A DNA stretch of 64,000 nucleotides from Kineococcus xinjiangensis (lineage in GTDB: Bacteria; Actinomycetota; Actinomycetes; Actinomycetales; Kineococcaceae): NCBI RefSeq assembly GCF_002934625.1, contig NZ_PTJD01000003.1, forward strand, positions 124,001 through 188,000, in the 5' to 3' direction. The translations under genes were made by a program, and so were the position numbers. Positions 51,385 through 58,362 of the stretch are shown one piece after another (the stretch's first letter is position 1; the number at the start of each line of letters is the position of its first letter). The notes below the pieces were generated by a model that ran no database searches, was not told the origin of the DNA, and saw nothing but the letters and a program-made list of their open reading frames with translations.

Positions 51385-54300
51385 TCAGCCCAGGCCGTGG
51401 GCCTCCTTGTACCGGCGCACCACCTCGCCGGCGACGCGCCCGCTGGCCGAGACCTCGATGCCCTGCTGCCGCGCCCAGGTCCGGACGAGCTGGGCCTCCA
51501 CGCCGGCCCCGCCGGACTCCCGGCGCGGGGCCGGGGGAGTGGCGCCGTCCCGCGACAGCCGGCCCGGGCCGGGCAGGGAGGTGACGGCCACGCCCTCGCC
51601 GAGCGCCAGGGCGGCGTCCGCGACGTGCAGGTGGTGCGTCAGCAGGACCACCTGCAGGTCCTCCCCGAGGCTGCGCAGCACCCGCAGCGCGGCGGCGACG
51701 CGGTGCTCGTCGAACGTCATGAGCACGTCGTCGAGCACCACGGGCAGCCCGGCGGCACCGGCGGCGCGCCAGCCGCGGTGCTGCTGCGCGATCGCCGCCA
51801 GCCGCAGTGCGAGGAACACCTGGTCCGCCGTCCCCTCCGACAGGCCCTGGCCCGCCACGGCCTCCAGCCCGTCCCCGCGGTGCACCAGCAGCTGCCGCTG
51901 CCCGCCGTCGTCGCCGGCGGACAGCCCCGTCCAGCGCCCGTCGGTCAGCGCCGTGAGCAGCTTCCCGGCCTCCTCCAGCAGGGGGTTGGCGCGGCGGGCG
52001 GCGAACTCCTCCAGCTGCTCGCGCAGCAGGCGCCGCTGCAGGTCGACCACCACGTAGCGCTCGGTGGCCTCCGCGAGGGCCGCCAGGGCCTCCGCGGCGC
52101 GCGCCGCCAGCACGTTGGCGTCGCCGGCGCCCTCCAGCCGGGCGACCTCCGCCCGCGCGGAGCCGAGCTCCTGCTGGGCGGCGGTGTAGGCCTCCTCGGC
52201 CTCCTCCCTGGCTGCCCCGAGCTGCTCGGCGTCGGTGCGCACGTCCACGTCGTCGCGCTCCCGCAGCCGGTGCAGCAGGCCCTCCACGTCGGGGTGGTCC
52301 TCGGCGAGGCGGGTCAGCAGCGCCGACTCGGCCTCCTGCAGCCGCTGCGCCTGCTCCCCGCGCTCCGCCGCTCCCGCGAGCGCCGCGGTGCCGTCGAGCT
52401 CGACGGCCGCCGGCCCGGCGCCCTCCCGCAGTGACCGGGCCGCGCCGAGCAGGCCGGTGAGGTCGGCGTCGGCCGCCGCGAGGGCCGCAGCGGCCGCCGC
52501 CTGGTCCTGCGCCCTGGCCGCCAGTCGCTCGTCGAGGTCCGCCGCCACCCGTGCATCGGCGCGGCTGTCGGAGAGCCGGTGGCTCAGCTCCGCCACCACC
52601 GCGCGGGCACGGGCCCCGGCGGGAGCGCCGGCTCCGGCGTCCGCCCGGGTGTCCGTGCCGGTGTCGAAGCCGGTGTCCGTGTCGGCCCCGGTGCCGGTGG
52701 ACAGCCGGGCGGCCAGCTCGCCGACCTGCTCCTCGAAGCGCGCGACGCGCTCGGCGAGGCGGCGGCTGAGGTCCCGCTGCTGCCCGGCGCGCGCCGTCGC
52801 GGCGGCCGCCGCCTCCAGGACGCGCAGGCGCTGCGCCCAGCCGGGCGGGCGCACTGCCGGCGGCAGCCCGGCGGCGGCCGCCGCCCGCTCCCACGCGCTC
52901 TCCGCGCCGGCCAGTTCCTCCGCCGCAGCGCGCCAGCGTTCCTCGGCCCGCCGCCGCGCGAAGCCGCGTTCGCGCGCCAGCGCCCGCTGCTCCCGCGCCT
53001 CGTCGGCGGTGGCGAGCACGCGCTGCGCACGGACGAGCGCGGTGTCGAGGTCGGGTGCGCTGCCCGCGCCCTCCGGGTGTCCGTCGGGGGAGTCCCCGCA
53101 GGAGCGGAGCACGGCCAGCAGCTGCAGGCGCTGGGCGTCCACGTCGCCGCGCAGCGCCGAGGCCCGCTGCTCCGCGGCCGTCGCCGCAGCGGCCGCCTCG
53201 CGTGCCTCGCCGAGGGCGCGCAGGACGTCGGGGACCTCCTCGTCGGCGGGCAGTGAGAGGCCCGCACCGGCCCAGCGCCGCGCCCAGGCGGCCTCCAGGC
53301 CGGAGCACTCCGCCTCGGCCCGCTCCTGCGCCGCGCCCGCCTCCGCCGCCTCCGCCCGCGCCGCGGCCAGCCGGCGCCGGCACAGCTCGTGCCGCGCAGC
53401 CGCGTCCGCGTCGGCGAGCAGTGCGTCCGTCACCGAGTCCAGGTGCGCCAGCGCGCGACCCAGCGCCTCGGCCTCCTCCGCCATGACGATGCCGTGCGAG
53501 GCCAGCGGCCCCCAGGCCGCGTCACGGGCCTGGCGGGCCGCGCGCAGGTCCTCGTACGTGGGGGCGCTGCCGCGGTCGGAGGCGGCCAGCGCCGTCGTGG
53601 CGTCCTCGACCTCGACCGCGCAGCGCCGGGCCTCGGCTGCGGCGTCCTCCGCACGGCGGCGGGCGGCCGCCAGCAGCGCGTGCTCGCGCCGCACCTCCCC
53701 GGCGTCGAGGCCGGGCACCGCGGCCGCCGGGTCGAGGGCACCCGCCGTGGCGGCGGCCCGCCGGGCGAGGGCCGCCTGCGCGTCGCGCTCGGTCAGCGCC
53801 GCGCGCCACTGCGCGGCGGCGGACCCCTCCCTGGTCAGGGTGGAGACGAGGTCGCCGAGCGCCACGACGGCGGCCTCGTCGGGGCCGGTCCCCGCGGCGG
53901 CCTCCTCGTGCTCGGCGGCCCGGGCCTGCGCGAGCGCCTCGGCGAGGTGGTCGGCCCGGCCGGCGAGCTCGGTGCAGCGCTGCCCGAGGGCGGTGAGGTC
54001 CGCGGCGACGTCCGCCGGCACCTCCACCCGCGCCAGGAGGGCCGCCAGCGGGGCGTCGCCGTCGACCCCGAGCTCCCGCAGCCGCTGCCGGGCCTGCGCC
54101 TCCGCCGCGTCCGCCTCCGCTGCGGCCGCCGCTGCCTGCTCCTCCTCCAGCGCCCGGGCCTCGGCGGCGTCGCGCAGCTCCTCGACCTCCGCCGCGGCGG
54201 CGAGCAGGGGCTCGTCGACCGAGCACCGCGCCCGCTGCGCGCGCAGCCGCTCCGCCTCCTCCGCCAGCTCCGCCAGCTCCGCCTGCGCCTGCTGCCGACG

Positions 54301-55170
54301 GGCGGTGGCGTCGGCGTGGGCGAGCAGGTCGGGCCCGAGGAGCAGCGGCCCTTCGGCGAGCAGCCTGGCGCGGGTGTCCCGCAACCGCAGGACCTCCCGG
54401 ACGCGGGGGAGGTCCCGGGCCTCCGCGGCCGCCGCCCCGGCGCTCCTGCGGGCCGCGCGCACCGCGGCGTCGGCGTGCGCCGCGGCCGTCGCCGCGGCCG
54501 TGGAACGCTCGCGGGCCTGCGCCACGAGGCCGGCGCGCGTCTCCGCCGCCGCCAGGTCCGCCCGCGCCTGCGCCAGCGCCGCCGCACGCTCGCGGACCAC
54601 CACCCTCGTGCCGCGGGGCTTCCACAGCCGCTCGGCCTCCGCCTCCAGCGCGGCCAGCACCTCGCGCAGACCGCTGCCGTGGTGGGCGGTGAAGACCAGC
54701 GCCGCGAGGTCCCCGCCCCCGGTGAGCACCGCCCGCCCGCCCTCGCGCAGCTGCTCGTGGGACAGGCCGAGGCGCTGCTCCCACCCGGCCCGGTCCGTCG
54801 CGCCGCCCCACGGCGGGTCCAGCGGCCCGGCGTCCGGCCCGGCGTCGGCCCGGTGCAGGCCGCGCGCGGTCCGCGCCACCTCCAGCTCGCCGCCGGGCCC
54901 GCACCAGCGGGCGGACAGGCGCAGCGCCTGCCGGGCGTGCTCGAAGGCGTAGCGCGGGCGCGCCTCGATGCCCCACAGCAGGTCCCCGACGGCCGCCAGC
55001 AGGGTCGACTTGCCGGCCTCGTTGGGGCCGGCGACCACCGTGACGCGTGCCGGCAGCTCCACGGCTGCGCCGGTGAAGGCGCCGTAGCGCTCCAGCCGGA
55101 CCTCGGCCAGGTGCCCGGGGGCGGCCGCGGCGGAGCCGGCGGCGGGCCGGGTGCTCTCGGGGACGCTCAC
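51385..55170 (-). CDS. YhaN-type SMC-like ATPase with C-terminal Lsr2 DNA-binding domain
   Basis: A 1261-residue Rad50/SbcC-like ATPase. Walker A is GPNEAGKST (residues 48-56) after RLERYGAFTG; the AAA27 YhaN-type N-terminal block continues with LRLSARW. About 900 residues of Ala/Glu/Arg-rich coiled coil follow. No CxxC zinc hook is seen in its middle. The C-terminal ATPase half has signature GLSEGTADQVFLALRLAA and Walker B VVLDDVLMTFD, then VVLLTHH. The last about 45 residues (LVRTWARQQGIEVSASGRV and following) match the Lsr2 C-terminal DNA-binding domain, which reads AT-rich minor groove; its RGR tip is SGR here. GTG at 55170 overlaps the stop of the nuclease gene (GTGA). I infer a nuclease-ATPase complex that senses DNA type. 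Confidence 0.9.
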   Translation of the reverse strand: MSVPESTRPAAGSAAAAPGHLAEVRLERYGAFTGAAVELPARVTVVAGPNEAGKSTLLAAVGDLLWGIEARPRYAFEHARQALRLSARWCGPGGELEVARTARGLHRADAGPDAGPLDPPWGGATDRAGWEQRLGLSHEQLREGGRAVLTGGGDLAALVFTAHHGSGLREVLAALEAEAERLWKPRGTRVVVRERAAALAQARADLAAAETRAGLVAQARERSTAAATAAAHADAAVRAARRSAGAAAAEARDLPRVREVLRLRDTRARLLAEGPLLLGPDLLAHADATARRQQAQAELAELAEEAERLRAQRARCSVDEPLLAAAAEVEELRDAAEARALEEEQAAAAAAEADAAEAQARQRLRELGVDGDAPLAALLARVEVPADVAADLTALGQRCTELAGRADHLAEALAQARAAEHEEAAAGTGPDEAAVVALGDLVSTLTREGSAAAQWRAALTERDAQAALARRAAATAGALDPAAAVPGLDAGEVRREHALLAAARRRAEDAAAEARRCAVEVEDATTALAASDRGSAPTYEDLRAARQARDAAWGPLASHGIVMAEEAEALGRALAHLDSVTDALLADADAAARHELCRRRLAAARAEAAEAGAAQERAEAECSGLEAAWARRWAGAGLSLPADEEVPDVLRALGEAREAAAAATAAEQRASALRGDVDAQRLQLLAVLRSCGDSPDGHPEGAGSAPDLDTALVRAQRVLATADEAREQRALARERGFARRRAEERWRAAAEELAGAESAWERAAAAAGLPPAVRPPGWAQRLRVLEAAAAATARAGQQRDLSRRLAERVARFEEQVGELAARLSTGTGADTDTGFDTGTDTRADAGAGAPAGARARAVVAELSHRLSDSRADARVAADLDERLAARAQDQAAAAAALAAADADLTGLLGAARSLREGAGPAAVELDGTAALAGAAERGEQAQRLQEAESALLTRLAEDHPDVEGLLHRLRERDDVDVRTDAEQLGAAREEAEEAYTAAQQELGSARAEVARLEGAGDANVLAARAAEALAALAEATERYVVVDLQRRLLREQLEEFAARRANPLLEEAGKLLTALTDGRWTGLSAGDDGGQRQLLVHRGDGLEAVAGQGLSEGTADQVFLALRLAAIAQQHRGWRAAGAAGLPVVLDDVLMTFDEHRVAAALRVLRSLGEDLQVVLLTHHLHVADAALALGEGVAVTSLPGPGRLSRDGATPPAPRRESGGAGVEAQLVRTWARQQGIEVSASGRVAGEVVRRYKEAHGLG

Positions 55171-56459
55171 CGCAGGCCCCCCAGCCGCGCCTCGAGCTCC
55201 GCGGCGGCCTCCTGCGCGAGGGCGGCCAGCGTGCGGGGGTCCTTCAGGTCCAGCAGCTCGCCCTCGGCGAGGTCCAGGCCGACCTCGGTGCGCAGCTGCC
55301 GCAGCGGCTTGGTCAGCTCGCCCGGCTGCGCCACCTGGGCCGCCGCCGCCCGGCGCACGGCCGCCAGCAGGTCGGCGTCCACCGGCTGCAGCGCGGCCGG
55401 GGCGGCGGCGCGCGAGCGGGCCCGCTCGCAGGTGACGCCGGTGAGCGCCGCCACCTGCCCGACCTCCTCGCGCAGGCGCTCGGCGTCCGCCAGCCGGGCC
55501 GCGGCGGGCGTGGTGCCCACCAGCGTGGCCCGCACGACGAGCGGCCTGTCCCCGGCCTGCGCGCGGGCGGTGGTGAACTCCGCCTGCACCCGCTCCAGCA
55601 CCTCCGGGTAGTCCTGCGCGCCCGACACGTCCACCTCCAGCGCCTCCCAGCGGGCCACGTCGAGGGCGTGGAAGCTCGCGCGCGCCTCGGCGCCGGGCTC
55701 CAGGTCCACCACGTAGGCGCCCTTGGGTCCGGTCTCGCGGGGGTGGCGGCCCTGCAGGTTGCCGGAGTAGGCGACGGTGTGCTCACCGGAGAGCAGCACC
55801 TGCCGCACGTGGATGTGCCCCAGGGCCGTGTACTCGTAGCCGAGCGCGCGCAGGTCGGCGACGCTGCAGGGGGCGTAGCGGGCGTGCTCGCCCGCGCTGC
55901 CGTCGACGGCGGCGTGCAGGACGCCCACGTTGACGAGGCCGCTGACGCGCTCGGGGTAGTCGGCGGCGAGGTTGTCGCTGACGGCCTTGGTCCGGTAGCC
56001 CTGCCCGTGCACGGCGAGGCCGAGGTCGTCGAGGACCAGAGTCTCGGCGGCGCCCACGTCGAACAGGTGCACGTTGGGCGGCAGCGTGAGGGAGTGGGTG
56101 ATCTGGCTCTCCGCGTCGTGGTTGCCGGAGGCGAGGAAGACGCGGATCCCCGAGTCGGCGAGGCGGCGCATCTGCTCGGTGAAGAAGCGGCCCGTGGCGT
56201 AGTCGTGCCACGTCCCGTCGTAGAGGTCGCCCGCGATGACGAGGACGTCGGCGCCCTGCTCCTCGCAGAGCGCGACGAGGTTGGCCAGCGCCCCGCGGCT
56301 GGCCTGACGCAGGGTCCGGGCGAGGTCGTCGTCGCCGAGCCGGGCCAGGCCCCGCAGCGGGGAGTCGAGGTGGATGTCCGCCGCGTGCACGATGCGCACG
56401 GCCGAGGGCGGGCGCGCGGGCGCCGGGGCGGGCGCGGCGTCGCGGTGGTCGGCGGGCAT
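55167..56459 (-). CDS. YhaO/SbcD/Mre11-like metallophosphoesterase nuclease
   Basis: A 430-residue partner of the ATPase. Phosphoesterase motifs: I VHAADIHLDSPL (Asp28, His30), II VIAGDLYDG, III ASGNHDAESQ, and the late HAAVDG and ALGHIHV histidines, so the two-metal site is complete. The region from about 270 to 430 forms the capping and C-terminal part specific to the YhaO group (PVDADLLAAVRRAAAAQ, LLDLKDPRTLAALA). A disordered Ala/Pro N-terminus of 20 residues precedes the fold. ATG at 56459; the stop overlaps the ATPase start. Function by family: DNA-end or hairpin nuclease in repair or defence. Confidence 0.92.
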   Translation of the reverse strand: MPADHRDAAPAPAPARPPSAVRIVHAADIHLDSPLRGLARLGDDDLARTLRQASRGALANLVALCEEQGADVLVIAGDLYDGTWHDYATGRFFTEQMRRLADSGIRVFLASGNHDAESQITHSLTLPPNVHLFDVGAAETLVLDDLGLAVHGQGYRTKAVSDNLAADYPERVSGLVNVGVLHAAVDGSAGEHARYAPCSVADLRALGYEYTALGHIHVRQVLLSGEHTVAYSGNLQGRHPRETGPKGAYVVDLEPGAEARASFHALDVARWEALEVDVSGAQDYPEVLERVQAEFTTARAQAGDRPLVVRATLVGTTPAAARLADAERLREEVGQVAALTGVTCERARSRAAAPAALQPVDADLLAAVRRAAAAQVAQPGELTKPLRQLRTEVGLDLAEGELLDLKDPRTLAALAQEAAAELEARLGGLR

Positions 56460-57147: not shown

Positions 57148-58362
57148 GTGGCGAAGATCAAGGTGCAGGGCCCCGTCGTCGAGCTCGACGGCGACGAGAT
57201 GACCCGGATCATCTGGCAGTTCATCAAGGACCGCCTGATCCACCCCTACCTCGACGTCGACCTGCGGTACTACGACCTCGGGATGCAGAACCGCGACGCG
57301 ACCGACGACCAGGTCACCATCGACGCCGCCAACGCCATCAAGGAGCACGGTGTCGGCGTCAAGTGCGCCACCATCACCCCCGACGAGGCCCGCGTCGAGG
57401 AGTTCGGCCTGAAGAAGATGTGGCGCTCGCCGAACGGCACCATCCGCAACATCCTCGGCGGCGTCATCTTCCGCGAGCCGATCATCATCTCGAACATCCC
57501 GCGCCTGGTCCCCGGCTGGACCAAGCCGATCATCGTCGGCCGGCACGCCTTCGGCGACCAGTACCGCGCCACCGACTTCCGCTTCCCCGGCGAGGGCACC
57601 CTCACGGTGACCTTCACGCCGAAGGACGGCTCCGAGCCCATCCAGCACGAGGTGTTCCAGGCACCGGGCGCGGGCGTGTCGCTGTCGATGTACAACCTCG
57701 ACTCCTCGATCATCGACTTCGCCCGCGCGTCGCTGAACTACGGCCTGGCCCGGAACTACCCGGTGTACCTGTCCACGAAGAACACGATCCTCAAGGCCTA
57801 CGACGGCCGCTTCAAGGACATCTTCGAGGAGGTCTACGAGTCGGAGTTCAAGGAGCAGTTCGAGAAGGCCGGGCTGACCTACGAGCACCGCCTCATCGAC
57901 GACATGGTCGCCTCTGCCCTGAAGTGGGAGGGCGGCTACGTCTGGGCCTGCAAGAACTACGACGGCGACGTGCAGTCCGACACCGTCGCGCAGGGCTTCG
58001 GCTCCCTGGGCCTGATGACCTCCGTGCTGGCGACGCCGGACGGGCGCACCGTGGAGGCCGAGGCGGCGCACGGCACGGTCACCCGCCACTACCGCCAGCA
58101 CCAGCAGGGCAAGCCCACGTCCACCAACCCGATCGCCTCGATCTACGCGTGGACGCGCGGCCTCGCCCACCGCGGCAAGCTGGACTCCACCCCCGAGGTG
58201 ACCGGCTTCGCCGAGACCCTCGAGGACGTCGTCATCAAGACCGTCGAGGGCGGGCAGATGACCAAGGACCTCGCGATCCTCGTCGGCCCGGAGCAGGGCT
58301 TCCTCACCACCGAGGAGTTCCTGGGCGCGCTGGACGAGAACCTGCAGGCCCGCCTGGCCTGA
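57148..58362 (+). CDS. icd: NADP-dependent isocitrate dehydrogenase, dimeric type
   Basis: Oxidative decarboxylation of isocitrate to 2-oxoglutarate, making NADPH. The 404-residue protein is of the homodimeric (eukaryote-like, type II) form: [19 protein letters not shown] at the N-terminus, [27 protein letters not shown] (substrate Ser/Asn), [20 protein letters not shown] with the metal-binding aspartates, and [12 protein letters not shown] for NADP. Actinobacteria often have the monomeric Idh instead, so the choice is of some note. GTG at 57148 has a GAGGAG ribosome binding site. A perfect palindromic terminator follows. Confidence 0.97.

What the first reader, a model, noticed from the sequence alone, without database searches (positions are those of the whole stretch)
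51385..56459. Rad50/Mre11-like pair whose ATPase ends in an Lsr2 DNA-binding domain
Seen: a YhaN-type SMC-like ATPase with complete Walker A, signature and Walker B, translationally coupled to a YhaO/SbcD-type nuclease. The last about 45 residues of the ATPase follow the Lsr2 C-terminal pattern (R.WAR..G..VS..GR....V...Y). Known: Lsr2 is the actinobacterial H-NS analogue that binds AT-rich, usually foreign, DNA; YhaN/YhaO-like complexes cut DNA ends or hairpins. Inference: the fusion could aim a nuclease complex at AT-rich invading DNA in a genome this GC-rich, making it a candidate anti-phage or anti-plasmid or chromosome quality-control system. Caution: the RGR tip that enters the minor groove is SGR here, so binding may be weaker or different.
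Basis: partly seen in the sequence, partly recalled or inferred. Interest (0 to 1): 0.85.

Follow-up and report, generated by a model that had tools for sequence, protein, structure and literature searches.

The report
DNA-end nuclease with Lsr2 DNA-binding tail
A bacterial DNA-cutting machine of the Mre11-Rad50 type carries, on a flexible string at its end, the DNA-gripping domain of the actinobacterial gene silencer Lsr2; the fusion is old and conserved in several actinobacterial groups, comes and goes between close relatives, and in some relatives sits beside known anti-phage systems, so it may be a tethered nuclease that works on broken or foreign DNA.

Summary
A YhaN/SbcE-type ATPase (51385-55170, minus strand) overlaps a YhaO/SbcD-type nuclease by 4 bp, and its residues 1225-1257 are a real Lsr2 DNA-binding domain (PF23359 37.3 bits, cut-off 26.9; relatives' tail profile hits Lsr2 structures at E about 1e-13; Lsr2 is the best fold match). 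The tail hangs on a disordered linker and in relatives evolves about as slowly as the ATPase core. It is shared by Kineococcus, Frankia, Lentzea, Saccharothrix, Umezawaea and Actinosynnema (one clade with untailed Pseudonocardia). The 12 other aligned fusions keep the minor-groove tip RGR; only the window has SGR, so AT-aiming is least certain here. The pair is facultative: one Kineococcus site holds this pair, a different SbcCD-like pair, or neither. In Lentzea it lies beside a complete Shango anti-phage system, Saccharothrix keeps a deletion scar of that layout, Actinospica repeats it with an untailed pair, and Actinosynnema has a PD-Lambda-1-like gene there; Kineococcaceae and Frankia sites lie among metabolic genes. 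Best reading: accessory Mre11-Rad50-type DNA-end nuclease tethered to duplex DNA by an Lsr2 domain. A defence role is plausible, not shown.

The parts
55167..56459 (-). YhaO/SbcD(Mre11)-type metallophosphoesterase nuclease, 430 aa
   Evidence: Metallophos PF00149 E=2e-12; TIGR00619 sbcd 56 bits, below cut-off 77.65; PDB phmmer hits SbcD/Mre11; all five catalytic motifs present
51385..55170 (-). YhaN/SbcE-type SMC-like ATPase, 1261 aa, with C-terminal Lsr2 DNA-binding domain
   Evidence: AAA_27 E=2.7e-42 and PF23359 37.3 bits; C-lobe model matches Rad50 in the PDB, E=3e-7
55167..55170 (-). 4-bp overlap GTGA between the nuclease stop and the ATPase start (translational coupling, inferred)
   Evidence: sequence
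55003..55029 (-). Walker A GPNEAGKST (residues 48-56)
51820..51843 (-). ABC/SMC signature LSEGTADQ (residues 1110-1117)
   Evidence: nearly all columns invariant in A1
51706..51741 (-). Walker B VVLDDVLMTFDE (residues 1144-1155)
   Evidence: core invariant in A1
51505..51561 (-). disordered linker between ATPase head and tail (about residues 1204-1222)
   Evidence: pLDDT below 50 in the AlphaFold model; lowest identity and highest dN of the three regions
51400..51498 (-). Lsr2 DNA-binding domain (residues 1225-1257), helix-loop-helix
   Evidence: PF23359; two helices in the model, high pLDDT; 2KNG/6QKP best fold matches; profile hit to Lsr2 structures E about 1e-13
51436..51444 (-). minor-groove tip, SGR here (RGR in the 12 other aligned fusions)
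57148..58362 (+). neighbouring isocitrate dehydrogenase gene; marks the site shared with Kineococcus
   Evidence: Iso_dh E=9.2e-61; 89% identical to Kineococcus icd

Best explanation
The pair is a facultative Mre11-Rad50-type (YhaO-YhaN, SbcEF-like) DNA-end nuclease. The YhaN heads and coiled coils bind and gate duplex ends in an ATP-dependent way and YhaO cuts; each YhaN C-lobe carries an Lsr2-type helix-loop-helix on a flexible linker, which grips the DNA minor groove next to the head and lengthens the complex's stay on duplex DNA (AT-biased in relatives with RGR; probably weaker or less selective here with SGR). Its work is most likely processing of DNA ends on damaged chromosome and/or incoming foreign DNA, as an accessory module and not an essential repair function. 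Shown: domains, catalytic motifs, conservation of the tail, facultative distribution, defence neighbours in some relatives. Inferred: complex formation, nuclease activity, tethering, biological role.
For: Catalytic motifs complete in both genes; nuclease and ATPase genes adjacent in every actinobacterial locus where both could be read; Lsr2 domain by Pfam, PHROGs, PDB profile and predicted fold; disordered linker; among relatives the tail keeps identity and dN close to the ATPase core while the linker diverges (e.g. 0.86/0.81/0.48 identity for tail/core/linker in one Kineococcus pair); tailed proteins fall, with untailed Pseudonocardia, in one clade with support 100. Facultative: 4 of 12 family genomes, 13 of 297 class genomes with the C-lobe, 7 of them tailed; three states at one site in Kineococcus. 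Lsr2 tails occur on other DNA enzymes: exonuclease, ERCC4 nuclease, D12 adenine methylase and phage Ku (PMC8612146), which fits a portable DNA tether. Shango and PD-Lambda-1-like neighbours.
Against: No activity, binding or phenotype data. The tip in this genome is SGR and its tail is more diverged from its sisters (identity 0.47-0.56) than its core is (0.67-0.69), so the tether may be weakening here. Pseudonocardia does without the tail. In this window and in Frankia the neighbours identified are metabolic genes.
Confidence: 0.55

Rival explanations
1. AT-aimed anti-phage/anti-plasmid nuclease: the Lsr2 domain recognises AT-rich invading DNA in a GC-rich host and the nuclease destroys it, alone or together with systems such as Shango.
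For: RGR tip in all 12 other aligned fusions; window 76% GC; complete SngA-SngB-SngC divergently next to the tailed pair in two Lentzea, and SngA, SngB and a contig-end SngC next to an untailed pair in Actinospica acidithermotolerans; in Saccharothrix the last quarter of YhaN joins the C-terminal third of SngC directly, a deletion scar that fits the Lentzea gene order; DUF4041/T5orf172 PD-Lambda-1-like gene in Actinosynnema; presence/absence and replacement at one site.
Against: SGR tip here; window neighbours are icd and other ordinary genes; no defence model covers the pair; the Actinospica pair beside Shango has no Lsr2 tail, so the tail is not what goes with Shango; adjacency was seen in few lineages and no control scan of random loci was run; the known relative acts in repair.
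Confidence: 0.25
2. Ordinary chromosomal repair: an SbcE-type double-strand-break repair complex for which the Lsr2 tail only provides nucleoid localisation.
For: B. [quoted passage not shown] SbcEF in PMC6452273); canonical SbcD is absent above cut-off from all 12 family genomes, so this pair or its replacement may be the main complex of this kind there; the replacing module at the same site is again an Mre11-Rad50-like pair; long-standing place next to icd shared by two genera.
Against: No pair at the site in G003 and G011; five of six Frankia-type genomes with the pair also have canonical SbcD; defence neighbours in several lineages.
Confidence: 0.3
3. In this particular genome the tail is a decaying remnant without DNA-binding function.
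For: SGR tip and lower tail than core identity to sister proteins.
Against: Domain still above the Pfam cut-off and predicted to fold; the last arginine of the tip is kept; Ler binds DNA with VGR (PMC4466236).
Confidence: 0.15

Closest known systems
SbcE/YhaN and YhaO (SbcEF) of Bacillus subtilis
   Same: SMC-like ATPase paired with an SbcD-type nuclease
   Different: No Lsr2 tail outside the actinobacterial clade in the relatives examined; direct sequence comparison with the B. subtilis proteins was not made here
SbcCD / Mre11-Rad50
   Same: Head fold (Rad50 best PDB match), nuclease family, ATP motifs
   Different: Nuclease scores below the SbcD curated cut-off; no CxxC zinc hook in the ATPase; extra DNA-binding tail
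Lsr2
   Same: C-terminal DNA-binding domain (PF23359; 2KNG, 6QKP)
   Different: No Lsr2 N-terminal domain (PF11774) on this protein; tip SGR here
Ku-Lsr2 fusion of mycobacteriophages Omega and Corndog (PMC8612146)
   Same: Lsr2 DNA-binding domain at the C-terminus of a DNA-end protein
   Different: Ku end-joining protein of phages, not an Mre11-Rad50-type nuclease
Shango (SngABC)
   Same: Lies beside the pair in Lentzea and Actinospica
   Different: Separate three-gene system; YhaO-YhaN is not part of its description (PMC10250203)

Membership tests
YhaN/SbcE-like ATPase (AAA_27) | AAA_27 N-lobe with Walker A and SMC-type C-lobe with signature and Walker B | tested here: met
Mre11-Rad50-type pair | adjacent metallophosphoesterase gene with complete catalytic motifs | tested here: met
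Mre11-Rad50-type pair | ATP-dependent nuclease activity of a physical complex | not testable with these tools
   needs biochemistry
canonical SbcD (TIGR00619) | score above curated cut-off 77.65 | tested here: not met
   56 bits
canonical Rad50 | CxxC zinc hook | tested here: not met
   no CxxC in the protein
Lsr2 DNA-binding domain (PF23359) | profile score above gathering threshold | tested here: met
   37.3 versus 26.9 bits
Lsr2 DNA-binding domain (PF23359) | fold of the Lsr2 C-domain | tested here: met
   2KNG rank 1 (probability 1.00, TM 0.64), 6QKP rank 2; E-values only 0.13 and 0.27 for this 53-residue model
Lsr2 DNA-binding domain (PF23359) | RGR minor-groove tip | tested here: not met
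   SGR in the window; RGR in the 12 other aligned sequences
Lsr2 protein | N-terminal domain PF11774 | tested here: not met
   no hit on the ATPase; the genome's own Lsr2 is elsewhere, G000:C10
known anti-phage defence system | full-length match to a defence model | tested here: not met
   only partial ATPase matches, best mad3 E=4.6e-12 over the C-lobe
anti-phage defence function | protects against phage or plasmid | not testable with these tools
   needs a challenge assay

The most novel reading that the evidence does not exclude
The DNA-binding domain of a xenogeneic silencer has become a portable aiming module in actinobacteria: fused to an Mre11-Rad50-type nuclease (and, in other genomes, to exonuclease, ERCC4 nuclease, adenine methylase and phage Ku) it steers DNA-processing enzymes by base composition, so that the YhaO-YhaN-Lsr2 complex acts as a composition-guided nuclease on foreign DNA, in some lineages as a partner of Shango.
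Probability: 0.2. Interest if true: 0.85.

Novelty: new variant of a known kind. Interest (0 to 1): 0.62.

Why it matters
If the tail tethers or aims the nuclease, this is a natural Mre11-Rad50-type machine with a built-in nucleoid/AT-rich DNA anchor, and a direct way to ask whether bacteria use base composition not only to silence but to cut foreign DNA. The Shango neighbourhood, seen with both tailed and untailed pairs, gives a concrete hypothesis for a nuclease partner of an anti-phage system, testable with a few constructs. I found no paper in the open-licence library that holds both Lsr2 and YhaN, and none of the 15 papers listed for Lsr2/SbcCD/Rad50 holds Lsr2 (72 papers matched, the rest not seen).

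Tried and rejected
Full-length ATPase as a whole-genome query failed twice; a 241-aa C-terminal piece and then an alignment worked. The class survey with the alignment scored only 8 candidates per genome, so absences there are not firm. Chance resemblance of the tail: rejected. Plasmid-borne spread: no actinobacterial plasmid among the named hits for the C-lobe; viral contigs: none. Simple one-gain history: parsimony cannot separate one gain plus one loss in Pseudonocardia from two gains on this tree; Pseudonocardia ends with a linker-like stretch, which favours loss by eye only. IetA/TRIP13 PADLOC neighbour hits are most likely the FtsH-type AAA proteases of the Frankia-type loci (members not read back one by one) and were discounted; the mad3 and mad8 hits of the same scan were not traced to a locus. 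Mutual exclusion with canonical SbcCD: rejected as a general rule, since five Frankia-type genomes have both.

Full report
What is there. On the minus strand, 56459-55167 encodes a 430-aa SbcD/YhaO-type metallophosphoesterase and 55170-51385 a 1261-aa YhaN-type SMC-like ATPase, overlapping by GTGA. Both have complete catalytic motifs. Pfam gives AAA_27 (E=2.7e-42), Metallophos (E=2e-12) and, at the ATPase C-terminus, Lsr2_DNA-bd PF23359 with 37.3 bits against a gathering score of 26.9; PHROGs agrees. The nuclease stays below the curated SbcD cut-off (56 versus 77.65 bits) and the ATPase has no CxxC zinc hook, which places the pair with YhaO-YhaN (SbcEF) rather than canonical SbcCD.

The tail. 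An AlphaFold model from 11 sequences shows the ATPase C-lobe, a linker with pLDDT below 50, and a helix-loop-helix of high confidence. The C-lobe matches Rad50 structures. A model of the tail alone has the Lsr2 C-domain structures 2KNG and 6QKP as its two best matches, with modest E-values (0.13, 0.27) but Foldseek probability 1.00 and 0.93; a profile of the tails finds 6QKP, 2KNG and 6QKQ at about 1e-13. Among relatives the tail is about as conserved as the ATPase core and the linker is not. In the window the tail is more diverged than the core, and its tip is SGR where the 12 other aligned sequences have RGR. H-NS and Lsr2 use Q/RGR; in Ler a VGR tip inserts only the arginine (PMC4466236). 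So DNA binding is likely retained, AT selectivity is uncertain here.

Distribution and history. Pairs with the tail occur in Kineococcus, Frankia/Parafrankia, Lentzea, Saccharothrix, Umezawaea, Actinosynnema and an actinobacterial MAG; Pseudonocardia, Actinospica, Actinocrinis and the non-actinobacterial relatives examined lack it. The two genes are adjacent in every actinobacterial locus where both could be read; in one proteobacterial locus (L032) they are separated. A tree of the N- and C-lobes puts all tailed proteins plus Pseudonocardia in one clade with support 100. In the class survey 13 of 297 genomes had the C-lobe and 7 of these the tail, and 4 of 12 genomes of the window's family have it.

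One site, three states. In Kineococcus the interval between a carboxyltransferase gene (next to icd) and a NUDIX gene holds YhaO-YhaN-Lsr2 (G004, G006; G009 on a broken contig), another SbcD/SbcC-like pair (G002, G010 in full; G007 and G008 read up to the contig end, without the NUDIX side), or neither (G003 and G011 with about 300 bp between the flanks, G001 with about 1.5 kb); G005 was not resolved. The replacing nuclease is only 28% identical to YhaO and its ATPase is barely alignable to YhaN. In the window, a different genus, the pair is also beside icd while the carboxyltransferase is about 70 kb away. The module is thus old at this site and dispensable or exchangeable.

Defence neighbours. 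A PADLOC scan of 56 neighbouring proteins of tailed loci, with its main hits read back in two batches, showed a complete Shango system (SngA, SngB, SngC) transcribed away from YhaO-YhaN in two Lentzea species. The same divergent layout occurs in Actinospica acidithermotolerans with an untailed pair: SngA and SngB are present and SngC runs off the contig end. In Saccharothrix sp. S26 the C-terminal third of SngC meets the last quarter of YhaN, as expected from a deletion in the Lentzea layout. Actinosynnema has a DUF4041/T5orf172 protein matching PD-Lambda-1 at that position. Shango is an established anti-phage system (PMC10250203). Against this, the neighbours identified in Kineococcaceae, Frankia-type and Pseudonocardia loci are metabolic or other ordinary genes, and no control scan of random loci was run, so the association is suggestive, not measured.

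Lsr2 tails elsewhere. In 60 genomes of the class most PF23359 hits lie in short, Lsr2-sized frames, but the domain also ends a DEDDh exonuclease (L169), a D12 adenine methylase (L171) and an ERCC4 nuclease (L172). Together with the published phage Ku-Lsr2 fusion (PMC8612146) this fits a portable DNA-binding tail on DNA enzymes.

Function. Most likely an accessory Mre11-Rad50-type DNA-end nuclease with an Lsr2-type tether. B. [quoted passage not shown] the paper itself was not held). Whether the actinobacterial tailed form serves repair, defence or both is undecided; I put defence by AT-aiming at 0.25 and plain repair at 0.3. Complex formation, nuclease activity, tethering and role are all inferred.

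Noticed in passing
L083 and L084 (G191, G182), C-terminus of YhaN from an untailed clade: Two YhaN proteins of another actinobacterial family end in CxxC...RGRGRxP...CxxC, a possible zinc ribbon with an AT-hook-like core (weak Pfam support, zf_Tbcl E=6.8e-4 for one). It would be a second, independent DNA-binding tail on YhaN.
   Followed up: partly
L169:437-2086:+, L171:418-1569:+, L172:345-1439:-, L177:1-498:+, L170:260-1507:-: Lsr2 DNA-binding domain on a DEDDh exonuclease, a D12 adenine methylase, an ERCC4 nuclease, a recombinase-like fragment (by eye) and an SMP-30-like protein.
   Followed up: partly
G000:C12:101014-101115 and G000:C15:63892-63996 (L003, L005): Two further proteins of the window's genome, alanine/lysine-rich and of unknown function, end in an Lsr2 domain with an RGP tip.
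   Followed up: partly
G000:C5, L102:43-1956 (+): SbcC_Walker_B protein (92.8 bits) that looks like Wadjet JetC, followed by a JetD-like frame: a probable anti-plasmid system in the same genome; read by eye, not run against PADLOC.
   Followed up: partly
L134:4387-8234 (-) and L133: A distinct SbcD/SMC-like pair (399 and 884 aa) occupies the YhaO-YhaN site in several Kineococcus genomes.
   Followed up: partly
L011:94-2919:- (Lentzea SngC): This SngC carries a C-terminal DEDDh exonuclease domain (RNase_T E=2.4e-28).
   Followed up: no
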